This document shows, one piece after another, positions 1-11,499 of a DNA stretch of 64,000 nt. Within the stretch, counting starts at the first letter, position 1; each line of letters begins with the position of its first letter. This DNA comes from Helicobacter pullorum NCTC 12824 (GTDB lineage: Bacteria > Campylobacterota > Campylobacteria > Campylobacterales > Helicobacteraceae). Below the pieces are notes generated by a model, which was given only the letters and a program-made list of their open reading frames with translations, did not search any database and was not told where the DNA came from. The stretch lies in NCBI RefSeq assembly GCF_017979475.1, contig NZ_JAERIT010000002.1, positions 186,001-250,000 of the forward strand. The letters run 5' to 3'. A program made the translations under genes and the position numbers.

Positions 1-1268
1 TGCCCTAACTCTCTTCTTCCGGGCGCTGAAATACTACTTGCTTCCCCTACACTAAAAGGCGGGAAATTATAATGCACCATAAAGCGTTCTTTAGAAGATG
101 CTTTGTCGGTTAATAATTCATAACTTTGAGCATCCATATCTCCCCCCAAAGTCGCAACCACCAACGCTTGAGTTTGCCCTCTTGTAAAAAGCACACTAGA
201 GTGAGCATTTGGCAAAAAATTAGTATCAATGCTAATTGGACGCACCTCTTTTAGTCCTCTACCATCTGCTCTTGTAGATTCTTCTAAAACCATCGCTCGA
301 ATAATCTCTCGCTTGATTTTCAAAATCGTCTCTAATATCCTTTTTGAAAGATCTTGAGTATCTTGCGGATATTTTTCTTCCCATTCTTTTTGAATTTTTC
401 TAGCAAAAGCCATCAAAAGACTATGTCTCTCTGTTTTTGAGAGACTTTGAATAATACCTTTTAACTCCCCTAAATGCTCACTTTGAATATACTCCAAAAT
501 CTTTTGACAAACATAAGTTTTTCTTGTTTGTTCTAAATTCAATGAAGGCTTAATATAGTCCTTAAAATGCTCTACAAACAACTTACTTTTTTGGGAAATT
601 GCATTTTTTGCTATCTCCAAAGCCTCTATCATTTCTTCTTCTTGCAATTCATTTGCACTAAAAATAGCTTGCCCTTCTTGTGTTTTTATACCCCCAAAGG
701 TGCGCATTTCAATCATCAACAAATCTTCATTCACACCGCTCACAAATAAATCTAATGAACTTTCTTCTAATTGCTTTAAACTCGGATTAATTACAAAATT
801 ATCTCCTATTTTGCCAATCCTAACAGCACTCACAGGAGAATAAAGCGGAATCTCACTCACATAAAGTGCAGCACTTGCCGCATTTAATGCCAAAAGTTGC
901 AAATCCGCATCTTGGTCTGCACTTAAAACCAAAATGGTAATTTGAGTAGGATAACAATACCCTTTGGGAAAAAGTGGTCGCAAACTCCTATCTACAATCC
1001 TAGCACTTAATGTTTCAAAATCTCCCGGTTTTGCTTCTCTTTTGATATATCCTCCAGGAAACTTCCCTGCTGCATAAGCTTTTTCAATATACTGCACCGT
1101 TAAAGGCAAAAAATCTTCTTCCACTACTTCTTGTGTATCAATAGCAACAGTGGCTAATACGACATTATTCCCACTTTGAAGATACACACTTCCGCTACAT
1201 TGTTTGGCAAATTTATCAAAAATATACTTCTCTTCTTTTTCCAAAAAAGACAAAATAGCTTGTCCCAT
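1..1268 (-). CDS. pnp: Polyribonucleotide nucleotidyltransferase (PNPase), 3' end cut by window edge
   Basis: PNPase is the phosphorolytic 3'-to-5' exoribonuclease of RNA turnover. About 422 codons are visible from ATG at 1268; the frame stays open to base 1, so the C-terminal part with the KH and S1 RNA-binding domains lies outside the window. Family motifs are clear: FPGGYIKREAKPGDFETL near residue 70, the RSLRPLFP segment that follows, and APGRRE at the edge, where the second RNase PH-like domain begins. It is the last visible gene of a minus-strand group purD, RDD, lptD, phosphoribosyltransferase, pnp, an order I recall from H. pylori. The 14-base gap from the gene upstream suggests cotranscription. 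Confidence 0.95.
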   Translation of the reverse strand, partial: MGQAILSFLEKEEKYIFDKFAKQCSGSVYLQSGNNVVLATVAIDTQEVVEEDFLPLTVQYIEKAYAAGKFPGGYIKREAKPGDFETLSARIVDRSLRPLFPKGYCYPTQITILVLSADQDADLQLLALNAASAALYVSEIPLYSPVSAVRIGKIGDNFVINPSLKQLEESSLDLFVSGVNEDLLMIEMRTFGGIKTQEGQAIFSANELQEEEMIEALEIAKNAISQKSKLFVEHFKDYIKPSLNLEQTRKTYVCQKILEYIQSEHLGELKGIIQSLSKTERHSLLMAFARKIQKEWEEKYPQDTQDLSKRILETILKIKREIIRAMVLEESTRADGRGLKEVRPISIDTNFLPNAHSSVLFTRGQTQALVVATLGGDMDAQSYELLTDKASSKERFMVHYNFPPFSVGEASSISAPGRRELG

Positions 1269-1282
1269 TCTTACTCCTTCAT

Positions 1283-1969
1283 TTATGATTGCATATTAGC
1301 AAAAATTTCCTCAATCTTAGCCGATTCTACTGCTGGATAATCTTTGTAATAATACCCAATATCTACAAAATTTTTAGATTTATAAAGACAGAAAATTCCA
1401 TCTGTGACTTCCTCCATCACTTTTGCAACCTCATAGGGTGCAACAGGTGTCGCAAAGTGAATGGTTTTTGCTTGCAAAGTGGTTACTGACTTAATTGCAG
1501 CAAGTGCAGTCAATCCGCTATCAATCCCATCATCTACAAGCAACACCCTCTTATTTTTCAAAGAAATGAGTGGATTTCCTTTGCGGTATTGATAAATCAA
1601 AGGAAGCATTTTATCTTCATATTGCCGTTGAACTTCTCCATAAATATAATCTAAACTAATCTCAAAAGAACGCACTAATTCATCACTAATTACAACATCA
1701 TGGGTTTCAGTTGCCATTGCAATTTCGCATTCTGGATTATTAGGTGCTAAAATCGGGGAAGTAAAAAGAAACCCCAAAGGAGCTTTAATAGCTTGTGCAA
1801 GAGAATTTGCTAGCAAAATACCTTCAAAAGAAATTCCAACCACCACGCAATCTTGCTTTTCAAAAAAGCTAAGTGGCATATTATTAAGAAGCTTCTGTAA
1901 AGCATCATTGCGATTTTCAAATAATGCCTTACGCATCAAAGAATGAGTATTATTTCCTGCTCCCAACAT
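1283..1969 (-). CDS. Phosphoribosyltransferase-family protein
   Basis: A 228-residue protein with the type I phosphoribosyltransferase fold. The PRPP-binding signature VLLVDDGIDSGLTALAA lies near residue 145 and has the two acidic residues that contact the PRPP ribose. The substrate cannot be read from the sequence; a purine or nucleobase salvage role is possible, and ComF-like or regulatory relatives also exist. The ATG at 1969 has a GGAGAGG-type ribosome site just upstream and sits 8 bases after the lptD stop, so it is probably translated from the same transcript as lptD and pnp. There is no signal peptide, so it should be cytoplasmic. Confidence 0.7.
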   Translation of the reverse strand: MLGAGNNTHSLMRKALFENRNDALQKLLNNMPLSFFEKQDCVVVGISFEGILLANSLAQAIKAPLGFLFTSPILAPNNPECEIAMATETHDVVISDELVRSFEISLDYIYGEVQRQYEDKMLPLIYQYRKGNPLISLKNKRVLLVDDGIDSGLTALAAIKSVTTLQAKTIHFATPVAPYEVAKVMEEVTDGIFCLYKSKNFVDIGYYYKDYPAVESAKIEEIFANMQS

Positions 1970-1977
1970 TCCCTCTC

Positions 1978-4110
1978 CTAACTTCCCATTTTCAAATCAC
2001 TACTTAAAAGCGGTATAAATTGAATCGTAAAAAGAATATATTTATCATCTCTTGCTTCTGCACCTCTTGAAGTCAGCATCGGATAAATTTCGCTAACATA
2101 TTTTACCCCAAATGAAAAACAGCGAATCTGCATATCTACGCCTACTTGCCAAGTTTTAAAATATTTCTCCCTATAATCATAACCTGCGTTTGCAAAAACA
2201 TCAAAATTTTCAAATTCTTTTCTAAAACCCATATTAATATAATTTGCCTCACCAAATCTACCATTAATCCAATCTTCTTTGGCAAAGCTTTCTCGCACAA
2301 AATGTCCAAAACTAGCTTTAATATAATTGCTTTCATAATTCACTTGATGAGTAGCTTCTGAGATTCTAGCCTCTTTGTGTGAATAAAAAATATCGCTTAC
2401 AAAACTCCATTGATTATTATAAAAATATTGTATCTCGTTTTCTAATTCCCCAAGTTTATTGTCATTATCCTCAAAATAAAAATATTGCTCCATTTTATGA
2501 GAAAGTATCAAAGAATTATCCAAAGTATAAAAATATTGCGTTCCACCAAGCTTAAACTCTTGCCTATCTCCAGGAAGTGTAAAAAAGGAAGTAAAATCCC
2601 CTTCTTTATGCTCAAATCCGGGCAAAGTATATTCTGCTTCCAAACTGATAGTATGCCCAAAACTATCATATTTTTTTACCAAATCTGTATTAGCTTTGAA
2701 ACGATAATATTGACTAAAATATCTCCCATTATTCAAATTCAAATCTTGCTGTTTATTTGAATAATCCACGCTTGTCCCATAAAAAATAGGCGAAAGTGAG
2801 ATATTCAAAAAATCATTCAACAAACTTTGTGTATAAATAATAGGCAACTCCGCTTCTTGTTGAATCGCACGATACCCAACAGGACGAGTAAAATTACTTG
2901 CCTTATAATCAAAAGAATAATAAAGATTATCCAACAAAATATTGTCAATTTGACGATGATATTGAATCTCTGGAAAAGTTTGCAAGGTATTAGCATTACT
3001 TGTTTGCTCCAAATCCGAATAATACCTCGCTGAAAAGCCCAAATAATCCTCACTGCTCTTTAAATAATAATTCAAGCGTGAAGTTAGTAAATTCCCCTGC
3101 AAATCTGCAATATTTTGTGCATCTTCTTCTTGCAATCTAAAATAATCAATATCAGAAATTTGGGAAATATCTACATACAATCCATCTTCATAAAAATAAT
3201 TTTCAAGTTTAGAAAATAAATTTTCTCGCTCATATTTAAGTTGGATTCCATAATGATCGCGATTCTCTAAATCATAAGTTTGTTGGTAAGAACGACTATT
3301 GCCAAAATAACCCAAATTTACCCACAAGATTTTATCTTGATCATCAATCATTCTAAATTCATTATAAAATCCGCCCCCTCTTTTTGTCCTAATTTGTGGC
3401 ATAAATGTCATATCCCAATTATCATCAGGTGCGATAAAAATAGGCTGCGAATAAAAAAATCCATCATCACTAGAATTACCAACAAGAGGATAAAGCAATC
3501 CCGTTTTTCTTTTGTATCCCAATGAAAAAGACAAATAAGGAAAATAAAGCACTGGAACATCATAAATACAAAGACGAGGGTGCCACACTGTTAGCCATTC
3601 ATCATTAGCATCATATTCTCCCTCTTTTGCCTTAATCGTCCAAATAGGATTATTCACACTGCAAGTAGAAATATTTGTTTCTTTGGTTTGATAAATATTA
3701 TTATTAAACTCTGCACTCTTAGAATCTACCCACAATCCACTTTCAGAATCTTGCAAATAAAAAGGCTCCAAAAAAGAATAATCCTCTTGGAGTCTAATCT
3801 TCACTTCTTGAGATTTCAAATAAAGCGAATTTCCCTTATACGCATTAACATTCCCACTAAGAAGAATCTCTTGCTTTTGTGTATCATAAATGGCTTTATT
3901 AGCTGTTACAAAATAATCAAGATTAATAATTGTAACATGCCCTTTTCCGATGATTTGCGTTTTATTGTATTCCATATCATCAGCTAAAAACTCAAAAATA
4001 GATTCTTGTTGCTGGTTAAACTGCTTGATTGCAGCCCTTGCTTCCATATTACTCGGACTCAAAGCCAAAGCTGCAACTACACTCACCAAACATAAGCTTT
4101 TTTTAATCAT
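1978..4110 (-). CDS. lptD: LPS-assembly protein LptD (Imp/OstA)
   Basis: LptD is the outer-membrane beta-barrel that inserts lipopolysaccharide into the outer leaflet. The 710-residue protein begins with a signal peptide (MIKKSLCLVSVVAALALSPS, cleavage near ARA) and an N-terminal OstA/LptA-type beta-jellyroll (about residues 40-140, with repeated GxVxxxxxD-type strands). It continues into an LptD barrel domain rich in Y/F/N, with the conserved stretch around PVLYFPYLSFSLGYKRKTG near residue 190. It is somewhat shorter than the 784-residue E. coli protein, as expected for this phylum. The position between the RDD gene and the phosphoribosyltransferase matches the conserved Helicobacter order. 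The stop is 8 bases before the next start. Confidence 0.93.
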   Translation of the reverse strand: MIKKSLCLVSVVAALALSPSNMEARAAIKQFNQQQESIFEFLADDMEYNKTQIIGKGHVTIINLDYFVTANKAIYDTQKQEILLSGNVNAYKGNSLYLKSQEVKIRLQEDYSFLEPFYLQDSESGLWVDSKSAEFNNNIYQTKETNISTCSVNNPIWTIKAKEGEYDANDEWLTVWHPRLCIYDVPVLYFPYLSFSLGYKRKTGLLYPLVGNSSDDGFFYSQPIFIAPDDNWDMTFMPQIRTKRGGGFYNEFRMIDDQDKILWVNLGYFGNSRSYQQTYDLENRDHYGIQLKYERENLFSKLENYFYEDGLYVDISQISDIDYFRLQEEDAQNIADLQGNLLTSRLNYYLKSSEDYLGFSARYYSDLEQTSNANTLQTFPEIQYHRQIDNILLDNLYYSFDYKASNFTRPVGYRAIQQEAELPIIYTQSLLNDFLNISLSPIFYGTSVDYSNKQQDLNLNNGRYFSQYYRFKANTDLVKKYDSFGHTISLEAEYTLPGFEHKEGDFTSFFTLPGDRQEFKLGGTQYFYTLDNSLILSHKMEQYFYFEDNDNKLGELENEIQYFYNNQWSFVSDIFYSHKEARISEATHQVNYESNYIKASFGHFVRESFAKEDWINGRFGEANYINMGFRKEFENFDVFANAGYDYREKYFKTWQVGVDMQIRCFSFGVKYVSEIYPMLTSRGAEARDDKYILFTIQFIPLLSSDLKMGS

Positions 4111-4119
4111 TTGGCTACT

Positions 4120-4578
4120 TTACTTCAAATTTACCACAATAGTTTTAGCAACTTTATCGTGCAATGCTTGATAAATCCTATTTTCAAAAACAAACAAAAA
4201 TGGAAGATACATCAACATCTCACTCAAAATTCTAAAACACGAACGCACAAAAGATTGCCCCATTTTAGGATTATCTAGCAATCCCACTTCAATGACGCGA
4301 ATCTTTACAACAATTTTACCAATAGTCGCTCCATAAAAACACACAAATAACCATTGATATACAATTTTGATGATATACAAGGCAATCCAAGAGCTAGAAA
4401 CAATACCCAAAATCGCTTCTTTATCGTGTGAATTTTGGACGATGCTATCCCAATTTATCCCTATTAGCACCATAGAAATTAGCAAATCATCAATAACAAA
4501 CGCTACCAACCGCTTCCAAAGAGGTGCAAGCTCAATCTCCTCTCGCGCTAATGTTTCTTCTATTTTTTCAATATCCAT
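4120..4578 (-). CDS. RDD-family integral membrane protein
   Basis: A 152-residue membrane protein with the RDD signature: an Arg in LWKRLVAFVIDDLL, the paired Asp residues in the first membrane segment, and GATIGKIVVKIRVI near residue 95, which is the usual GxTxGK motif after transmembrane segment two. Three hydrophobic segments are visible. The biochemical role of the family is poorly defined; some relatives have been linked to ion transport. The start codon shares one base with the purD stop (TAATG), so translational coupling to purD is likely. The lptD start follows 9 bases after its stop. Confidence 0.85.
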   Translation of the reverse strand: MDIEKIEETLAREEIELAPLWKRLVAFVIDDLLISMVLIGINWDSIVQNSHDKEAILGIVSSSWIALYIIKIVYQWLFVCFYGATIGKIVVKIRVIEVGLLDNPKMGQSFVRSCFRILSEMLMYLPFLFVFENRIYQALHDKVAKTIVVNLK

Positions 4579-5837
4579 TATTTTTCCAAAGCTTGATATG
4601 CAATATCCTTGCGATACTGCATTCCTTCAAATTGAACACAATCCACCATCAAATAAGCATTCTGTGCTGCTTCTTTTACATTATTGCCCTTACCCACACA
4701 CACCAAAACTCTTCCTCCACTTGCCAATAAATCTTCCCCTTCTTTACTCACTCCAGCATAAGAAATCAAAGAATCTTGAGAATCTTTTGTAAGAATTTTG
4801 ATTTTTTCTTTTTTGGAATTTTTATATGGATAATCTTTTGAAGCAACCACTACACCAACACAAACTTGTTCTTCAATTTCGTAATTTACGCCTTTTAAAT
4901 CTCCCCTAGCACAACCCAAAAAACAATCTAATAATCCATTTTTAAAAAGAGGCATAAGCACCTCACATTCAGGATCCCCAAAACGCACATTAAATTCCAA
5001 CAAATAAGGTTTATTTTTGACAACCATTATTCCACAAAACAATGTCCCACTAAAAGGATTCCCATCTTTTTCCATTCCCTCCAAAGTGGGGATAATAATA
5101 GTTTTTTTCACCTCATCAATCAAATTAGAATCCGCCAATAAAGAAGGTGCATAAGCCCCCATTCCACCAGTATTTGGTCCCTTATCTCCATCCAGTAATC
5201 TTTTATGATCTTGTGCAGGGGGCAAAACGATAAAATCTGCTCCATCACACATTGCAAAAATAGAAAGCTCAAAGCCATCTAAAAATTCCTCTATGACTAC
5301 CTTTTTGCCCGAATCACCAAAACTTTTCCCATCTAACATTTCTTTTGTTACACTTTTGGCTTCTTCATAACTTTGTGCGATAATCACGCCCTTGCCCGCA
5401 CACAACCCATCTGCCTTAACAACAATAGGAAGATTCAAGGTATCAATAAAATCACAAGCTTCTTTATAATCTTGTGTTTGGATAAATTGTGCTGTTGGGA
5501 TTCCATAGCGTTTAGCAAATTCTTTCATATAAGCCTTAGAACCTTCTAATTGTGCCGCTTTTTGACTTGGACCAAAAACCAAAATACCATTTTCTCTTAA
5601 CATATCTGCTAAACCATCTACCAAAGGTGCTTCAGGACCAATTATCACCAACCCAATTTTCTGTGTGATTGCAAACTCTACAAATTCTTGATAATTCTTA
5701 AAATCAATATTTTTCCCAAGTCTGCTTGTTGCCCCATTTCCGGGATAAAAATAAATTCCATCTACTCTACACTCTTTTTGCAAGGCAAGCCCAATAGAAT
5801 ATTCTCTCCCGCCACTTCCAACAATCACTATCTCCAT
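4578..5837 (-). CDS. purD: Phosphoribosylamine-glycine ligase
   Basis: GARS ligates glycine to 5-phosphoribosylamine using ATP, the second step of purine synthesis. The 419-residue length is normal. The N-terminal motif VGSGGREYSIGLALQK, GPEAPLVDGLAD near residue 75, the ATP-grasp loop ADGLCAGKGV near residue 143, NTGGMGAY near 225, and FGDPECEVLMP near 287 are all diagnostic. ATG at 5837 has AGGTAAAGT upstream. It is the first gene of the minus-strand group that runs to pnp. A structured RNA lies directly upstream on the same strand. Confidence 0.97.
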   Translation of the reverse strand: MEIVIVGSGGREYSIGLALQKECRVDGIYFYPGNGATSRLGKNIDFKNYQEFVEFAITQKIGLVIIGPEAPLVDGLADMLRENGILVFGPSQKAAQLEGSKAYMKEFAKRYGIPTAQFIQTQDYKEACDFIDTLNLPIVVKADGLCAGKGVIIAQSYEEAKSVTKEMLDGKSFGDSGKKVVIEEFLDGFELSIFAMCDGADFIVLPPAQDHKRLLDGDKGPNTGGMGAYAPSLLADSNLIDEVKKTIIIPTLEGMEKDGNPFSGTLFCGIMVVKNKPYLLEFNVRFGDPECEVLMPLFKNGLLDCFLGCARGDLKGVNYEIEEQVCVGVVVASKDYPYKNSKKEKIKILTKDSQDSLISYAGVSKEGEDLLASGGRVLVCVGKGNNVKEAAQNAYLMVDCVQFEGMQYRKDIAYQALEK

Positions 5838-5892
5838 ACTTTACCTTTATTTTGATATTTAAAATCTCTACTCCATAGAAATTTTAAAAACC

Positions 5893-6092
5893 AAAAACCC
5901 AAGTGGGCGTCTATCATTGTGTAAGCCCTAAAAGCTAAAGATTCTAGCCACAAGTCTTTTATTAGGCGGCAGATTCTCGTCTCAACTTAAGAGACTGATA
6001 GCGAAAACACCATCACACAAAAAGAAACTATGCAACCAGCAATATTTTATATGTTGGACTACCAAAAAATAAAAACTCGCTCCACTCAGGCA
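5893..6092 (-). ncRNA. Candidate structured RNA upstream of purD, best guess 6S RNA
   Basis: This roughly 200-base stretch has no plausible coding frame and is less AT-rich than its surroundings. The predicted RNA ends pair with each other: CCTGAGTGGAGCG (6090 down to 6078) with CGCCCACTTGGG (5909 down to 5898), 12 pairs with one bulged A. A second helix TTGTGT/ACACAA and an apical GTCTC/GAGAC hairpin sit inside, leaving a large internal bulge. A TATAAT -10 box lies just upstream. A closed terminal stem, central bulge, length near 180-200 and a purine gene next door fit 6S RNA, which captures sigma70 RNA polymerase. I excluded tmRNA, RNase P RNA and SRP RNA because their invariant blocks are absent. 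The 6S assignment is inference; the structure is seen. Confidence 0.5.
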
Positions 6093-6098
6093 ACTAAA

Positions 6099-6104
6099 AT
6101 TATA
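6099..6104 (-). promoter_or_regulatory. -10 box (TATAAT) for the structured RNA
   Basis: A perfect TATAAT hexamer reads on the minus strand from 6104 to 6099, about 7 bases before the inferred 5' end of the RNA. The region upstream is AT-rich without a clear -35 box, as is usual for vegetative promoters in this phylum. Confidence 0.5.
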
Positions 6105-6217
6105 AAATATCCTAGCTAAAAATAGCTTTTAATTTAAAGAATTAACAATAAAATTAATATTTTTTTGGCAAAATACGCCTAATGATAAATATTTTAAAAA
6201 TAATTAGGAGTAAATTT

Positions 6218-6715
6218 ATGATAAAAAAAATGCTCATTTCCACAATTTTAAGCCTTAGTATTTTGAATGCTAATGAATGTGTCTGTTTTGAATTAAAGGG
6301 AGAATTTGGAGAGGAAATCAAAGCAATTTTGAAAAAATATTCCAAAAATCTAGGTTCTAAAGATATTCAAGTTGTTAGAGAAGATGCGGATTTAACAATT
6401 CAAGAAAGAAGTTTTTTAGAGAGCCTTATAGGCACAGGCGAGGTAGCCCCTTCTGCTAAACAAGCCAATTTAGAAAATGGTAAAAAACTCTATAATAGAG
6501 ATTGTGCAAGCTGTCATGGAGAGAAAGGAGAAATCTCTGTGGCAAAAAAATCACCCATTAACACTTGGAGTGCGCAAAACATTGCTGATGAAATCAAAAG
6601 TTATCAAGATCAAAGTTTCCAAGGGCAATCTCGCTTTGTTAAAAACCAAATTGCCACTCGCTACACCAAAAAAGATATGGAAGATGTCGGAGCCTATGTT
6701 GAGAGCTTGAAGTAG
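6218..6715 (+). CDS. Monohaem c-type cytochrome
   Basis: A periplasmic electron carrier of 165 residues. It has a short signal peptide (MIKKMLISTILSLSILNANE), an N-terminal segment of about 70 residues of unknown function, and a class I cytochrome c domain with one haem site, CASCH near residue 96, ending in a typical C-terminal helix (MEDVGAYVESLK). The ATG at 6218 was chosen over 6182 because AGGAG lies 7 bases before it and the signal peptide then starts correctly. Redox partners cannot be named. It stands alone, convergent with the acyltransferase operon downstream. Confidence 0.85.
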   Translation: MIKKMLISTILSLSILNANECVCFELKGEFGEEIKAILKKYSKNLGSKDIQVVREDADLTIQERSFLESLIGTGEVAPSAKQANLENGKKLYNRDCASCHGEKGEISVAKKSPINTWSAQNIADEIKSYQDQSFQGQSRFVKNQIATRYTKKDMEDVGAYVESLK

Positions 6716-6719
6716 AATA

Positions 6720-6746
6720 TGGGGATTTTACATTTATATTTCCCCA
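6720..6746. terminator. Hairpin between convergent genes
   Basis: TGGGGA (6720-6725) pairs with TCCCCA (6741-6746) across a T-rich 15-base loop, in the short gap between the convergent cytochrome and acyltransferase genes. AT-rich flanks on both sides would let it act in either direction. The stem is short. Confidence 0.4.
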
Positions 6747-6753
6747 ATTAAAC

Positions 6754-7533
6754 CTAAGTAGATAGAACAAAATATTTCTCATTATTAGAGATTTTATCGT
6801 TAATAGCCGCTTTGGCTTCTACTAAATCAATCACACCTATTTCCCCTCCCCCAAATGGCAATATTTTTAAACATTGACTTTCTTTAAGAAAATTAGCCAG
6901 TCTCATATAATCAATTTCACTTGAAACCTCCAAATCCCTAACAGAATAAACTACCTCATGGGAATATTTGCTTCCAAAATTACTAACAATTCCCCTAAAA
7001 ATTTTTGGATAACGATAAGAAACACCCAATAAAGTTTCTAAATAATGAAAAAATGTATAGCCTTTATACCAATTCCCAAAAAGTACAATTTTTCCCCTGT
7101 GTTGTATTAATTTCTCATAAACACTATTTTTACCAAGTACTTCATTTGAAATATCAAGATAATCTCTAGCATTAGTCCCAAAAACAGCAAAAGAAAATAT
7201 AGGACATTTTGTTCTCATTACTCCCTTTTTATGTCTAAAATGCTCACTTAAAATACCCATTGTAGAAAAAGATTCTTGTACATTGTAAATTTCATTCTTG
7301 CAGAAACTATAAGTAAAAGTTGGCATTAAAATTGTTCCTTTTAGACAGATATCTAAAAACAAATTAGAAATTCTCTCGCATAATTTATTTTTTTCTAACA
7401 AAGGTTTTCCTATCTTATACAATTCACTATGTATGCAAATATCATCATCTTTTTTAATCCCCAACTCTTTCATTGCTTTTATTAAATCCAAATCTCTTAT
7501 TGTCTTACACTTGTATAAAAAAAGTTCTTCCAC
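6754..7533 (-). CDS. AAC(3)-family acyltransferase
   Basis: A 259-residue member of the family named for aminoglycoside 3-N-acetyltransferase, which moves an acyl group from a thioester to an amine. Visible family features are DICIHSELYKIG near residue 33, GTILMPTFTYSF near residue 70, MGILSEHFRHKKGVMRTKCPIFSFAVFG near residues 93-120, and the FGNWY segment after it. Relatives without drug targets occur in surface-glycan loci, for example next to an acyl carrier protein gene in the C. jejuni flagellar glycosylation region. Here too it lies one base from the ACP gene, so an ACP thioester may be its acyl donor (inference). It is the last gene of the operon. Aminoglycoside resistance is possible but less likely from context. 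Confidence 0.75.
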   Translation of the reverse strand: MEELFLYKCKTIRDLDLIKAMKELGIKKDDDICIHSELYKIGKPLLEKNKLCERISNLFLDICLKGTILMPTFTYSFCKNEIYNVQESFSTMGILSEHFRHKKGVMRTKCPIFSFAVFGTNARDYLDISNEVLGKNSVYEKLIQHRGKIVLFGNWYKGYTFFHYLETLLGVSYRYPKIFRGIVSNFGSKYSHEVVYSVRDLEVSSEIDYMRLANFLKESQCLKILPFGGGEIGVIDLVEAKAAINDKISNNEKYFVLST

Positions 7534-7757
7534 TACAAAACCCCTTTTGCATTCAAATAATCCATAATTGCTTGAATATTCTTAAATTTTTCTATTTCTA
7601 TTTCTTCTCCAAAAATATCTATTTGATAGGACTCCTCTAGTGCTCCAATTAGCTCCATAAAAGAAAAAGAATCTAAATATCCATCAGCCATAAAATCTTC
7701 GCTCTCAAAATCTATTTCATTATTAATTTTTAATAGAATTTTCTTTATTTTTTCCAT
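7533..7757 (-). CDS. Free-standing acyl/peptidyl carrier protein
   Basis: A 74-residue acidic carrier protein. The phosphopantetheine attachment site is the Ser at about residue 30 in DGYLDSFSFMELI; DSF replaces the usual DSL. The four-helix pattern and high Asp/Glu content fit the family. It is not the fatty-acid AcpP, which is normally found beside the fab genes. The neighbour at 8503-11499 is an adenylation enzyme that lacks a carrier domain, so this protein is the natural acceptor for its aminoacyl product (inference). Its stop overlaps the start of the AAC(3)-type gene, so the two are translationally coupled. Confidence 0.85.
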   Translation of the reverse strand: MEKIKKILLKINNEIDFESEDFMADGYLDSFSFMELIGALEESYQIDIFGEEIEIEKFKNIQAIMDYLNAKGVL

Positions 7758-7784
7758 TTAATACTCCTTAAAAAAACATAAATA

Positions 7785-8519
7785 TTATTCATAATTTGCA
7801 AAAATTTCATTATAGATTCCACTTTTGCAATAGCCCAATTTTTCATAAAAATAAATCGCCTTTACATTGTTAGAATCTACCCATAATTCACTTTTTCTAA
7901 CTCTAACTACATTCAAATAATGCTGCATTAATTGTTTGCCCAATCCCATTTGTTTAAAATCCTTATCAATACAAATAAATTCTAAACGGGATAGGAGCCC
8001 TTGAATGGAAAATACCAAAACACCAACTATTTTATTTTTTATTTTTATTATCAAAACTTGTTTTTCAAAAATCATCCTTTCTAAATTTTTCCTATCTATT
8101 AACTTATCAAAAGTCTCATGAAAGCTTTGTAGTAATAAACTCATTACATTTTCCACCTCATCAATACAAGCATAAGTAATAGCATAGTCTTTAGAAATCC
8201 ATTTAACTTCTCTATCCATTTTGATAAATTTTCTTTTTATAAACAAACCATTCTTTTCAAGCACTTTACAAAAAATATTTTTTTGTTCCCCACTATAAAT
8301 AATATTTGTAGCAATTTTCTCGCCAGTGGGAATTACAATCTCATAAGGAAAAACCAAAAAATAATATAACCATTTAGTATTAAATCGGCTTTGCAAAAAC
8401 GATATACCGCTTGTTGTCTCATAAAGAGGAATATGATTAAGATTTTTTATTGTCTCAAAATCAAAACAATTTGTAATAAAACTTTTCTCTCTTCTAAGCA
8501 TTTTAACTTTCAACAACAT
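7785..8519 (-). CDS. GNAT-family N-acetyltransferase with an extra N-terminal region
   Basis: The C-terminal 120 residues of this 244-residue protein are a GNAT domain: the acetyl-CoA loop is FKQMGLGKQLMQHYL near residue 190, followed by the motif B segment NNVKAIYFYEKLGY. The first 120 residues match no domain I recognise and may bind the substrate. The ATG at 8519 overlaps the previous gene by 17 bases and has an AGG ribosome site; a second ATG at 8501 would start just after that stop, and I cannot choose firmly. It sits between the adenylation enzyme and the carrier protein, so it may acetylate the amino group of a carrier-bound or transferred amino acid (inference). Confidence 0.75.
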   Translation of the reverse strand: MLLKVKMLRREKSFITNCFDFETIKNLNHIPLYETTSGISFLQSRFNTKWLYYFLVFPYEIVIPTGEKIATNIIYSGEQKNIFCKVLEKNGLFIKRKFIKMDREVKWISKDYAITYACIDEVENVMSLLLQSFHETFDKLIDRKNLERMIFEKQVLIIKIKNKIVGVLVFSIQGLLSRLEFICIDKDFKQMGLGKQLMQHYLNVVRVRKSELWVDSNNVKAIYFYEKLGYCKSGIYNEIFANYE

Positions 8520-11499
8520 TGCTTTTACCTACTTTTACCAATAATCCATTTTCTACAAATTTTCTAATCCACTCTTTCATATCCAACAAACAAAAACCAC
8601 ATTTATCCGCAATCTCTATTAAATCCAACTTCCCATCACAATACATAAGCAAATTCCTCATATCTTTCACCATACCAAAAGTTTCCTTAGTCGAGAGTTG
8701 CGGATAAAGCCCTCTTTTGCCAAGCTGCGGTTCGCACAAAATGGTATTTTTATATACACCATTAATCTCCAAAACCTCTAAAATCTCACGCACCATCACA
8801 AAGCCACCTTGCAAACCTTTGGGACTAATAAAAGACAAATCATCTAAAGAAGTGTGATATTGTGAATATTCCCCAAACTTACTTCGCATTAAAGTGCAAA
8901 AGGGCAAATCCACACCCGGCGCACAATACTGCCTCTCATCACTTCCCCTTTGCAAATAAGAATAGGCTTTATATCCCCTATACCTTGAATTTAAAATATG
9001 CTTAGCAGCCCTATCTGCGAGGTTATTTCCAGCCCTTGATTCAAGATAAGAATACGCCCCCTCATCTCCAATACAAGTAAGCACAAACCCAGCCACACAT
9101 TTCTCCCTTAACTCCTCTAAATGCTGACTTAGATAATAAATCGCCCCTATGGTTTCAGGCACAAATAAGATTCTATAAGTGTAAAAATGTGGAATCTCAC
9201 TTAAATATTTTGCCAAATAAGTTGCCACACAGATTCCAGAAAGCTCGTTGTTTGCCATTTGCGGATGACAAATATAAGTGCTTAGGACAATCTCCTTGTT
9301 ACTCTCTCCCTTTATTACCACCTCTCCATAACTCATAAATCCGCTCTCAAGCTTTGAATCAATAACGACTTCAAACTTTTCTTTAGAATCTCCAAACTCT
9401 CTTTCTAGCTTTTCTCTTAGCTCCAAGCTCAAGCAAAATCCCCAATATTCTTTATAATAAGAAGTAATATAAGGAATAGCATTTTTCTGCTCTTTTAAAC
9501 TATGCAAATGCGATTTCAACTCCTCAAAAGTGAGAGATTCCCTCACAGGCACAGAATACCCCACCAAATGCAAATTATTCTCCCCAAAATCACAGATTTT
9601 CTCTCCACTAGGCGTGATAATATAAGCCTCATTTACATTCCATTCTTTTGGAATCTCCCAGTCAAAAACTTGAGTATGGCTTGGAACTTCATAAACTTTT
9701 AAATTCCCTCCTAAAATGCTATTAATAATCCTAAGTGTCTCCCTATTCCCATTCCCACTTAAAGAGCGAGGAATCTTAAAAAGTCTTTGTGCAAGCTCAT
9801 ACATCAAAACGCCAAAATTCTTCTTATTTTCTATGAATTGAGATTCAACCCAAACCCTAATTTGCTCTCTATCAATCTTGCCATTGCTATTAAGAGGAAA
9901 AGATTCCAAAGCTAAAATCTGCATTGGTATCATATAATGTGGCAATCTTTGTTTGCATATTTTTAGAATCTCATCACTCTTGATACTTTTAGCCTCAATC
10001 ACCCCCACAATACTTGTAATACCATCGTTTTTTATCACCACACTTACACTTTGTGTTTTGCTAACCTCCCTTAAAACATTATCAATTTCCAAAAGCTCCA
10101 CGCGGAATCCTTGAATCTTTACCTGAAAATCCACACGCCCCAAAAAGCAATACACTTCTTCCCCATTAATTTCTTTTAAAATCCCTAAATCTCCGGTTTT
10201 ATACCACCTTACCCCATTTTTGGTGATAAATTTCTGCTCTGTTTTTTCTCTATCATTCAAATAACCTTGTGCTATTTGATCCCCTCCTAGCCAAATTTCC
10301 CCTTTCTCCCCTTTTGTTACCTCATTTCCTGTCTCATCTCTTAAACTCACCAAAAGCCCATCAAATGGAATCCCTAAAGGCACAATCTTTTCTTGAAGTT
10401 CTGCCCCATAGCAATAAGACATAAAAGCAATTGTAGCCTCTGTGGGTCCATAGAGATTCTCCACCACACTATTTTTACACATCTCACTCCAAAGTTTAGC
10501 ATTCTGTGTTGGAAATTCCTCCCCACAAAACAACGACAATCTCAAACTTGTTATTAAATTAGGTTTTAAAGCTTTAAATTTTATCAAATAAGCAATCAAA
10601 GAAGGCACAGCAAAAAACACACTTAGATTATTTTGTATAATAAATTTAATGGGATTAAAAAGGGATTGCTTGGGAATCACACACAAAGTCGCTCCACTCA
10701 AAAATGCACAAAAAATATCATGCATACTTAAATCAAAAGTAATATCAAAGAAGTTTGAAATTCTATCTTGTGGGCTGAAGCGATACTTTGCAAGCATTCT
10801 CTGTGTATAGGCAAAGAGATTATCACGACTAACCATAACGCCCTTTGGCTCACCTGTGCTACCTGAAGTAAAAAGCAAATAAGCAGTTTTGCTAGGAAAA
10901 TTAGAAATGCTAGAAGAGCTACAATCACAACTTTGCTTAAAATCGCCCCCAAAAGCCGTACAAGATTGCAAGTTTGACTTCAAGCCAGATTCTATATGCG
11001 TTTCTAAGAGCCGCCATTTATTACAATCCAACTCTAAAATCTTTGGAATAACAATAAATTTATGCTTAGGGAATCTCTCCTCTAAATCCCCTAATTCCTC
11101 AACCACAATCACCAAAGATTCTAAAGATTCTGCAATCTCATCAAAAGAATCATAACATTCCCTTCCTAAAAACATTATCCCAGCACCGCTTCGTTTTATC
11201 ATAGACAAAAGTCGTTGGCTTGGAAATTTTGGATTTAGCGGGACATAGGTTTGATAAACTAAAATACAAGCAAGAATAGAAGTATAAACTAAAGCACTCC
11301 GAGAAGCAAAAATAAGTATTTTATCAGAATTAACTGCTAAATGCCCCCTCCCCCCACGCACATCAAGAATCAAAGATGCGAGAATCTTAGATTGAAAACC
11401 TAATTCTTGATAAGTAATTTTTGCCCCCTCTACCTCTAGGGCGATATTATTTGCATTTTTTACAAAAGATTCTTCTAATGCCTTACACAATAAGTCCAT
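8503..11499 (-). CDS. Adenylation enzyme fused to an M28-like (DUF4910-type) aminopeptidase domain
   Basis: A 998-residue two-part protein. Residues 1-545 are an NRPS-type adenylation domain: LLFTSGSTGEPKGV near 210, YGPTEAT near 350, RWYKTGDLG near 425, GRVDFQVKIQGFRVE near 455 and NGKIDR near 538. The Asp of FDLSMHDIF corresponds to the residue that binds the amino group of amino-acid substrates. No carrier, condensation or thioesterase domain follows. Instead residues 600-925 resemble the DUF2172/DUF4910 M28-like fold, with CHPQMANNELSG near 743, PETIGA near 780 and GSDERQYCAPGVDLP near 851, and a winged-helix tail ends the protein. Such M28-like proteins occur in polysaccharide loci. The start has AAAGGAA, which overlaps the ABC-F stop. 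The product is unknown. Confidence 0.85.
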   Translation of the reverse strand: MDLLCKALEESFVKNANNIALEVEGAKITYQELGFQSKILASLILDVRGGRGHLAVNSDKILIFASRSALVYTSILACILVYQTYVPLNPKFPSQRLLSMIKRSGAGIMFLGRECYDSFDEIAESLESLVIVVEELGDLEERFPKHKFIVIPKILELDCNKWRLLETHIESGLKSNLQSCTAFGGDFKQSCDCSSSSISNFPSKTAYLLFTSGSTGEPKGVMVSRDNLFAYTQRMLAKYRFSPQDRISNFFDITFDLSMHDIFCAFLSGATLCVIPKQSLFNPIKFIIQNNLSVFFAVPSLIAYLIKFKALKPNLITSLRLSLFCGEEFPTQNAKLWSEMCKNSVVENLYGPTEATIAFMSYCYGAELQEKIVPLGIPFDGLLVSLRDETGNEVTKGEKGEIWLGGDQIAQGYLNDREKTEQKFITKNGVRWYKTGDLGILKEINGEEVYCFLGRVDFQVKIQGFRVELLEIDNVLREVSKTQSVSVVIKNDGITSIVGVIEAKSIKSDEILKICKQRLPHYMIPMQILALESFPLNSNGKIDREQIRVWVESQFIENKKNFGVLMYELAQRLFKIPRSLSGNGNRETLRIINSILGGNLKVYEVPSHTQVFDWEIPKEWNVNEAYIITPSGEKICDFGENNLHLVGYSVPVRESLTFEELKSHLHSLKEQKNAIPYITSYYKEYWGFCLSLELREKLEREFGDSKEKFEVVIDSKLESGFMSYGEVVIKGESNKEIVLSTYICHPQMANNELSGICVATYLAKYLSEIPHFYTYRILFVPETIGAIYYLSQHLEELREKCVAGFVLTCIGDEGAYSYLESRAGNNLADRAAKHILNSRYRGYKAYSYLQRGSDERQYCAPGVDLPFCTLMRSKFGEYSQYHTSLDDLSFISPKGLQGGFVMVREILEVLEINGVYKNTILCEPQLGKRGLYPQLSTKETFGMVKDMRNLLMYCDGKLDLIEIADKCGFCLLDMKEWIRKFVENGLLVKVGKSNVVES

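What the first reader, a model, noticed from the sequence alone, without database searches (positions are those of the whole stretch)
6754..11499. Compact acyl-transfer operon: adenylation-M28 fusion, GNAT, free ACP, AAC(3)-type transferase
Four coupled minus-strand genes between housekeeping genes bring together activation (adenylation domain), a stand-alone carrier protein, two acyltransferases of different folds and an M28-like domain. Established knowledge: adenylation domains load carrier proteins; AAC(3) folds acylate amines; DUF4910-type M28-like proteins and ACP plus AAC(3) pairs occur in surface-glycan loci. Inference: an amino acid is loaded on the ACP, N-acylated by the GNAT protein and moved to an amino sugar or small amine. 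No condensation, ketosynthase or thioesterase domain is present, so this is not a usual NRPS or fatty-acid path. I know of no described system with this exact set.
Basis: partly seen in the sequence, partly recalled or inferred. Interest (0 to 1): 0.78.

Follow-up and report, generated by a model that had tools for sequence, protein, structure and literature searches.

The report
Swappable acyl-transfer operon in Helicobacter
A four-gene Helicobacter operon most likely loads a small amino acid onto a carrier protein, caps it with an acetyl group and attaches it to an amino sugar, probably one that decorates the flagellum, and a close relative carries the same machine with the capping and transfer genes exchanged as a block.

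Summary
In detail: a 998-aa adenylation–DUF4910 fusion, a GNAT, a 74-aa carrier and an AAC(3)-fold transferase, tightly spaced. The grouping is not chance. Adenylation domain, DUF4910, carrier and AAC(3) lie together in 10 of 10 other loci of the Helicobacter family. The full set, DUF4910 unfused and apparently split or short at its start, recurs in two genomes of another family, L152 and L183. Across phyla AAC(3) lies within 5 kb of DUF4910 in 55 of 77 loci and in no far flank. In relatives a formyltransferase or an uncharacterised ~240-aa protein fills the GNAT slot; one formyltransferase is fused to the adenylation domain. Against the closest cassette seen, exactly the GNAT–carrier–AAC(3) block is exchanged. 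The pocket resembles that of AlmE, a glycine ligase. DUF4910 is the Cj1295 family, needed for an unusual N-acyl group on flagellar pseudaminic acid in C. jejuni (PMC3068675, passages). New variant of a known kind.

The parts
8503..11499 (-). Adenylation-DUF4910 fusion, 998 aa
   Evidence: fused orthologues
9844..11499 (-). Adenylation domain (about residues 1-552); core motifs and Lys541 present; pocket code DLHFLCLIAK
8761..9801 (-). DUF4910 (M28-like) domain, residues 567-913, with inserted DUF2172 (619-716)
   Evidence: 3k9t match 2.2e-102
8536..8757 (-). HTH_47 winged-helix domain, residues 915-988
7785..8519 (-). GNAT N-acyltransferase, 244 aa; N-terminal part without a Pfam match and C-terminal GNAT domain with QMGLGK (acetyl-CoA motif, recalled)
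7533..7757 (-). Stand-alone carrier protein, 74 aa; DSF motif, Ser30 as expected phosphopantetheine site
6754..7533 (-). AAC(3)-fold acyltransferase, 259 aa, GTG start
6715..8542 (-). Stretch with no blastn similarity to the closest cassette seen (G006): GNAT, carrier and AAC(3), read as exchanged as a unit
   Evidence: GC

Best explanation
The operon makes and transfers an N-capped aminoacyl group. The adenylation domain activates a small amino acid (glycine is the best guess, alanine second) and loads it on the stand-alone carrier protein. The GNAT acetylates the free amine of the carrier-bound amino acid; a formyltransferase or a ~240-aa protein of unknown function fills this slot in relatives. 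The AAC(3)-fold enzyme and/or DUF4910 then move the N-acetyl-aminoacyl group from the carrier to the amine of an amino sugar, most likely a pseudaminic-type sugar of the flagellar glycan. In the preferred division of labour DUF4910 frees or activates the acceptor amine (removing an existing acyl group, or exchanging it directly) and the AAC(3) enzyme forms the new amide. Shown by sequence and comparison: gene content, intact motifs, the conserved unit, the difference of the capping and transfer block between relatives. Inferred: the amino acid, the order of steps, the acceptor, and which enzyme makes the amide.
For: Core adenylation motifs and the carrier Ser are present. The pocket matches 4oxi at 7 of 9 aligned code positions and DltA (3fcc) at 5 of 9 (read); that 4oxi is the glycine-carrier ligase AlmE is recalled, AlmE's glycine role is from passages of PMC12930378. 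The same 10-residue code recurs in three Myxococcales at 34-35% overall identity, in loci that also hold DUF4910, AAC(3) and a carrier (the carrier of L108 is 5.1 kb from DUF4910). The full set with GNAT recurs in L152 and L183 with similar overlaps. The capping slot changes while the adenylation-DUF4910 part stays. Adenylation domain and formyltransferase are one ORF in L151, as F and A domains are joined in linear gramicidin synthetase, where N-formylation follows loading (passage of PMC8949500). GNAT homologues picked by sequence alone: of 10 loci fetched out of 18, 9 hold an adenylation domain (8 on the same strand), 7 a carrier, 6 a PseI-like gene (one of them, L186, overlaps the DUF4910 locus L148). 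AAC(3) lies near DUF4910 in 55 of 77 named loci, all on the same strand, 0 in far flanks. The window AAC(3) falls in a clade whose sister group of ten rows has six in loci with PseB-PseC-DUF4910 (L138, L139, L140, L143, L144, L149). The genome holds PseI and PseH matches over cut-off, two PF01973 (Maf-type, recalled) genes and one phosphopantetheinyl transferase match. Cj1295 decides the N-acyl group at C5 of pseudaminic acid (passages of PMC3068675).
Against: No glycan structure or enzyme assay for this organism was found. The operon is not next to glycan genes, and PseI-type genes are near-universal in the relatives (55 of 59 with a match, 47 over cut-off), so co-occurrence does not name the acceptor. 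In C. jejuni Cj1296/7 (N-acetyltransferase) was out of frame in both variants while Cj1295 alone decided the modification (Table 1 of PMC3068675), which argues against AAC(3) as the required transferase there. 22 of 77 named DUF4910 loci have no AAC(3) within 5 kb, some on short contigs. Adenylation domains lie near DUF4910 in only 10 of 77 named loci (6 have one in the far flank). The specificity code differs in L152 (DNLFLALVDK) and L183 (DNLFLCLDVK), so those may use another amino acid. In L152 the first ~31 residues of DUF4910 are in another frame and in L183 its ORF is only 338 aa, so DUF4910 may be off there. GNAT homologues share only 20-35% identity, mostly in the GNAT domain, and two (L152, L140) lack the acetyl-CoA motif.
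Confidence: 0.58

Rival explanations
1. DUF4910 itself is the amide-forming (transacylase) enzyme: fused to the adenylation domain, it takes the acyl group from the carrier and puts it on the sugar amine; AAC(3) does a different acylation of the same sugar or is a helper.
For: Fused to or directly beside the adenylation domain in the window and 9 of the 10 other family loci (in L043 an AAC(3) lies between). Cj1295 matters while Cj1296/7 is out of frame in both variants. Das 2014 proposed transacylation and notes that both M28 peptidase active-site residues are replaced. No AAC(3) within 5 kb in 22 of 77 named loci.
Against: AAC(3)-type enzymes are known amide-forming acyltransferases (recalled) and sit near DUF4910 in 55 of 77 named loci. 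Carrier type and AAC(3) type go together in the blocks where both were read, which suggests that AAC(3) reads the carrier-bound donor.
Confidence: 0.25
2. The acceptor is not a nonulosonic acid but another amino sugar or lipid (LPS, lipid A or a small amine), as in AlmEFG glycylation of lipid A or D-alanylation by Dlt.
For: AlmE/DltA-like pocket and best NCBIfam score to a DltA model. No Pse-type gene was seen in any of the 10 other family loci, near or far. N-acetylglycyl on Qui4N is known in O-antigens (passage of PMC3210612).
Against: No membrane transferase among the four genes. DUF4910 with AAC(3) and carrier lies in Pse clusters in other Campylobacterales. In L041 the cassette is a few ORFs from FliE and a flagellar rod protein gene; L039 and L046 have ORFs of like sizes there.
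Confidence: 0.22
3. The operon makes a small secreted metabolite (a capped amino acid amide), as an NRPS-like secondary pathway, not a glycan.
For: Adenylation, carrier, N-capping and transfer enzymes suffice for an N-acyl amino acid amide; the best solved relatives of the adenylation domain are NRPS proteins.
Against: DUF4910 neighbourhoods are sugar loci (Das 2014; 38 of 77 named loci have a Pse-type or related gene in view). No condensation domain in the four proteins.
Confidence: 0.08
4. AAC(3) and GNAT are drug-acetylating resistance genes that happen to sit beside an adenylation gene.
For: The Pfam and NCBIfam names are those of resistance enzymes.
Against: Scores far below the resistance equivalogs (50.6 against a cut-off of 270 bits); conserved operon with carrier and DUF4910.
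Confidence: 0.02

Closest known systems
Cj1293-Cj1297 region of the Campylobacter jejuni flagellin glycosylation locus (Cj1295 DUF4910, Cj1296/7 N-acetyltransferase; PseB and PseC as names of Cj1293 and Cj1294 are recalled)
   Same: DUF4910 plus an N-acetyltransferase beside it; amino-sugar N-acyl modification
   Different: There DUF4910 is a 435-aa protein of its own, lies in the glycan locus, and the acyl group is di-O-methylglyceroyl; the window has an adenylation-carrier-GNAT donor branch in the same operon
CA_C2195 (3k9t) neighbourhood of Clostridium acetobutylicum (Das et al. 2014)
   Same: DUF4910/DUF2172/HTH_47 protein with carrier protein and amino-sugar N-acetyltransferases; that paper also mentions gene fusions without naming the partner in the passages seen
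   Different: ATP-grasp aminoacyl ligase and glycosyltransferases, and no adenylation domain in its Table 2; zinc ligand Asp195 is Asn in the window
AlmE-AlmF-AlmG of Vibrio cholerae
   Same: AlmE-like pocket; free-standing adenylation plus carrier delivering one small amino acid
   Different: No N-capping enzyme; lipid A acyl-chain acceptor and a transferase AlmG
Initiation module of linear gramicidin synthetase (F-A-T)
   Same: Adenylation, carrier and N-capping of the loaded amino acid; an A-formyltransferase fusion exists in L151
   Different: No condensation domain; the window has an acetyl-type cap and delivery by AAC(3)/DUF4910

Membership tests
DUF4910 / Cj1295 family | DUF4910 with inserted DUF2172 and C-terminal HTH_47 | tested here: met
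   3k9t match 2.2e-102
DUF4910 / Cj1295 family | 3k9t zinc ligands His189, Asp195, His324 | tested here: inconclusive
   both His invariant in the 11 sequences of A1; Asp195 is Asn followed by Glu in the window and in 111 of 118 copies whose motif was found (the sample leans to this type because of the search pattern, and at least five loci are in it twice)
DUF4910 / Cj1295 family | needed for an N-acyl change on a flagellar sugar | not testable with these tools
   needs mutant and mass spectrometry
Cj1296/7-type AAC(3) | groups with AAC(3) of PseB-PseC-DUF4910 loci | tested here: met
   clade of 15 rows 98/87 holds the window's group of 5 (99/96) and a sister group of 10, six of them in PseB-PseC-DUF4910 loci; no tool names any of these loci as C. 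jejuni, so kinship with Cj1296/7 itself is inferred from gene order
AAC(3) aminoglycoside resistance enzyme | score above the NCBIfam equivalog cut-off | tested here: not met
   50.6 against 270 bits
DltA / AlmE-type aminoacyl-carrier ligase | adenylation domain with core motifs and AlmE/DltA-like pocket, outside a multimodular NRPS | tested here: met
   but here it is fused to DUF4910, not free-standing
DltA (D-Ala ligase) itself | score above the NCBIfam DltA cut-offs | tested here: not met
   275.5 against 476 bits and 266.6 against 559.85 bits
DltA / AlmE-type aminoacyl-carrier ligase | loads the cognate carrier with one amino acid | not testable with these tools
   needs purified proteins
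NRPS module | condensation or thioesterase domain | tested here: not met
   none in the four proteins

The most novel reading that the evidence does not exclude
A plug-in acyl-exchange system for bacterial amino sugars: a constant adenylation-DUF4910 engine that supplies an aminoacyl group and swaps it for an existing N-acyl group, combined with interchangeable blocks (capping enzyme plus own carrier plus own AAC(3)) that recombine as units and so change the surface sugar's cap (acetyl, formyl or a third kind) between related strains.
Probability: 0.35. Interest if true: 0.7.

Novelty: new variant of a known kind. Interest (0 to 1): 0.52.

Why it matters
DUF4910 has a crystal structure and a mutant phenotype, but no reaction was shown for it in the papers seen here. 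Fusion to an adenylation domain, and operons that hold a complete donor branch, turn that question into a small reconstitution with four purified proteins. If right, surface sugars of some Helicobacter carry N-capped amino acids; a search for pseudaminic acid, glycyl and flagellin found two papers, neither titled as a Helicobacter glycan study (listing only). Block exchange would be a route to antigenic variety beside phase variation.

Tried and rejected
Rejected: drug-resistance reading of the AAC(3) and GNAT (scores far under the curated cut-offs). Rejected: full NRPS module (no condensation or thioesterase domain). Unlikely: AAC(3) or GNAT as a PseH replacement in this genome, since a PseH over its cut-off lies at G000:C16:154476. 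Led nowhere: paper searches for a system of this kind (none; two, not to the point by their listing), for pseudaminic acid with glycyl and for N-acetylglutamine (two papers, structures only in the passage seen). Plasmid search for the AAC(3): 75 records, all under 60% identity, 10 listed, context of none inspected. Structure prediction of the GNAT never started, so the nature of its N-terminal half is open. The ~240-aa third-slot protein: three copies scanned against NCBIfam gave nothing and six against Pfam nothing over a cut-off; a profile comparison with CxxCxxCC proteins gave probability 56.6 and E 1e-4 over 103 columns (one of its 12 template rows, L175, was read in a wrong frame), suggestive only. 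PF03692 itself did not ring at those places in 30 genomes.

Corrections made on re-reading: my notebook entry after says that 8 of 10 GNAT loci have an adenylation domain and a carrier; the counts are 9 of 10 (8 on the GNAT's strand) and 7 of 10. The draft also left out that DUF4910 is split or short in L152 and L183.
Full report
WHAT IS THERE. On the minus strand at 6754-11499 lie four genes: an adenylation-DUF4910-HTH_47 fusion, a GNAT, a PP-binding carrier and an AAC(3)-fold protein. Junctions are tight: 17-nt overlap, 27-nt gap, 1-nt overlap, and the first gene starts 9 nt after the ABC-F gene. The adenylation core motifs, the carrier DSF and the GNAT motif QMGLGK are present (what these motifs mean is recalled).

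THE UNIT IN THE HELICOBACTER FAMILY. DUF4910 occurs in 10 of 19 own-genus genomes and 11 of 36 own-family genomes; PF02522 occurs in all 11 of these and in 2 of the other 25 (Fisher p 1.3e-7). In the 10 loci other than the window (nine of the genus, and G025 of another genus of the family) an adenylation domain, a carrier and an AAC(3) lie within 5 kb on the same strand in 10 of 10. Adenylation and DUF4910 are one frame in the window, L039, L044, L047 and, with a stop in the DUF4910 part, L040; in L041, L042, L045, L046 and L048 they are neighbours, and in L043 an AAC(3) lies between. One search marked no such fusion in any other of its 124 loci, apart from the three named duplicates L056-L058.

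TWO KINDS OF BLOCK. Behind the adenylation-DUF4910 part lies one of two blocks, or both. Type b: a capping enzyme, a type-b carrier (49-53% identical to the window's) and a type-b AAC(3) (41-44%): the window with GNAT; L044, L046, L047 and L048 with a formyltransferase. Type a: a type-a carrier, a ~240-aa protein and a type-a AAC(3) (27-31%): L039, L040, L041, L042 and L045, and also L046 and L047, which carry both blocks (the type-a carrier of L047 was found by profile only). L042 also holds a formyltransferase. L043 is a different arrangement with a ketosynthase-III-like gene and short formyltransferase-like matches. Carrier type and AAC(3) type go together in every block where I read both. 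The tree of 86 AAC(3) rows puts the window with the four type-b rows (99/96) and the seven type-a rows in a separate clade (100/99).

BLOCK EXCHANGE. Against L040, at the same chromosomal site and with the most similar adenylation domain seen (73%), blastn similarity runs from 4001 to 6714 (purD side, up to the cytochrome c stop) and again from 8543 through DUF4910, adenylation domain and ABC-F (gaps at 9783-9856 and 10896-11065); nothing aligns between 6715 and 8542. That is the GNAT-carrier-AAC(3) block and nothing else. The block is also AT-rich: 26.4, 26.2 and 28.6% GC against 36.4% for the fusion and 33.5-37.2% for four flanking genes. In the other loci the contrast is weaker. I read this as replacement of the block by recombination; direction and source are not shown, and it rests on one pair.

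OUTSIDE THE FAMILY. L152 and L183, from two genomes of family f11 of the same order (unnamed; I take it for Campylobacteraceae from its PseB-PseC-DUF4910-AAC(3) order), hold DUF4910, adenylation domain, GNAT, carrier and AAC(3) in this order on one strand. In L152 the first ~31 residues of DUF4910 are in another frame and in L183 the DUF4910 ORF is 338 aa, so DUF4910 may be off, as Cj1295 can be. L151 has the adenylation domain and a formyltransferase in one 739-aa ORF, then carrier and AAC(3). Among 32 DUF4910 loci of other Campylobacterales families AAC(3) lies within 5 kb in 23 (21 on the same strand), a carrier in 15, an adenylation domain in 11, PseB in 12 and PseC in 13. In L049 DUF4910, AAC(3) and carrier end a run of PseB, PseC, PseF, PseG, a formyltransferase, PseI, a ligase, an FkbM methyltransferase and a Gfo/Idh-like protein, with no PseH among the ten proteins scanned. 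Among 77 named loci (80 less three Helicobacter) AAC(3) lies within 5 kb in 55, all on the same strand, and in 0 far flanks (698 kb near, 650 kb far); carrier 27 near, 6 far; adenylation domain 10 near, 6 far. These loci are the most similar of 576 found and not an even sample; two of them are also among the 32. Pse-type genes were sought with single sequences, so related NeuA/NeuB-type genes are counted with them: 38 of 77.

A CHECK ON THE GNAT THAT DID NOT USE CONTEXT. The GNAT was searched alone in 398 genomes of the order: 19 with E up to 1e-5, own included. I fetched 10 of the 18 others. An adenylation domain is in 9 of 10 (8 on the same strand, 5 of these directly adjacent), a carrier in 7, an AAC(3) in 6, a PseI-like gene in 6. 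The two without a same-strand adenylation domain (L190, L192) have the two shortest GNAT frames. Identity is 20-35%, mostly in the GNAT domain. L186 overlaps the DUF4910 locus L148, and L140, another hit, was already in hand. No other own-genus genome among those searched had a match.

SUBSTRATE. The pocket code is DLHFLCLIAK. Read from the alignments, 4oxi has D L H L F C L I A at the nine positions covered and DltA (3fcc) D L M T L C T V A: 7 and 5 of 9 in common. [quoted passage not shown] that 4oxi is this protein is recalled from its molecule name. The code is DLHFLCLIAK also in G006 and three Myxococcales, DLHFLCLISK in six other family loci (L039, L041, L044, L046, L047, L048), DVHYMCLIVK in L042, DVHYLCLIIK in L045, and quite different (DNLFLCLDVK, DNLFLALVDK and others) in L043, L151, L152, L183 and more. 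Glycine is therefore a prediction for this lineage only.

MECHANISM. Adenylation domain loads the carrier; GNAT caps the amine; the capped group goes to a sugar amine. The fusion in L151 and the presence of non-homologous capping enzymes in one slot are the best evidence that the second gene acts on the aminoacyl side; F domains of NRPSs formylate after loading on the carrier (PMC8949500, passage). For the acceptor, Hitchen et al. 2010 (PMC3068675, passages) found that Cj1295 decides whether flagellin pseudaminic acid carries the di-O-methylglyceroyl group at C5, and proposed that it cleaves the C5 acetamido group. Das et al. 2014 (PMC4000134, parts 1-3 of 5 and passages) proposed transacylation to an amino sugar, from the loss of peptidase residues and from neighbours that include a carrier and amino-sugar N-acetyltransferases. 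A 2026 paper reports that cj1295 clusters with pseudaminic genes across 16,130 genomes (PMC13130089, abstract and passages). N-acyl amino acids on such sugars have precedents: N-acetylglutamine on C. jejuni pseudaminic acid (PMC3958885, passage) and N-acetylglycyl on Qui4N (PMC3210612, passage). This genome has PseI and PseH matches over cut-off, two PF01973 matches and one phosphopantetheinyl transferase match.

AGAINST. Table 1 of Hitchen shows Cj1296/7 out of frame in both variants, so an AAC(3) was not needed there; other transferases may stand in, or DUF4910 is the transferase. No Pse-type gene was seen in any of the 10 other family loci. Nothing here shows that the adenylation domain loads this carrier.

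VERDICT. Real, conserved and functionally coherent; parts of it were described before; the adenylation-DUF4910 fusion, the complete donor branch and the block exchange were not met in the papers found (searches; Das 2014 mentions fusions without details in what I read). New variant of a known kind.

Noticed in passing
L040 8006-10972 (same place as L056): The A-DUF4910 gene of Helicobacter sp. 11-8110 has one in-frame stop in the DUF4910 part, while its carrier, third-slot protein and AAC(3) are open.
   Followed up: partly
L043, L051, L145, L148, L149, L151, L152 (DUF4910 genes): DUF4910 is split near residue 30 in several genomes, as expected of a phase-variable gene like Cj1295; repeat tracts were not inspected there, and the window operon has no G/C tract of 7 or more and no A/T tract of 9 or more.
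   Followed up: partly
L039, L041, L046: In L041 the cassette lies a few ORFs from FliE, a flagellar rod protein and a penicillin-binding protein; L039 and L046 have ORFs of like sizes there. In the window, L040, L042, L044 and L045 it lies next to the ABC-F gene.
   Followed up: partly
L039:4302-5033 and relatives; L140:9536-10285: A ~240-aa protein without a family over cut-off lies in 7 of 10 other family loci; it has a CC and RPLxCRxYP pattern like CxxCxxCC proteins.
   Followed up: partly
residues 744-755 of the fusion: The zinc ligand Asp195 of 3k9t is Asn with a Glu next to it in 111 of 118 DUF4910 copies whose motif was found.
   Followed up: partly
L188:7589-8965: A 458-aa protein beside a PseI-like gene has an N-terminal part with a THEHFDH motif (recalled as metallo-beta-lactamase type) and a C-terminal part like the window GNAT.
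   Followed up: no
G000:C16:153320-153717: Two partial PseH-like pieces, one with a stop, lie just beside the PseH over cut-off of this genome.
   Followed up: no
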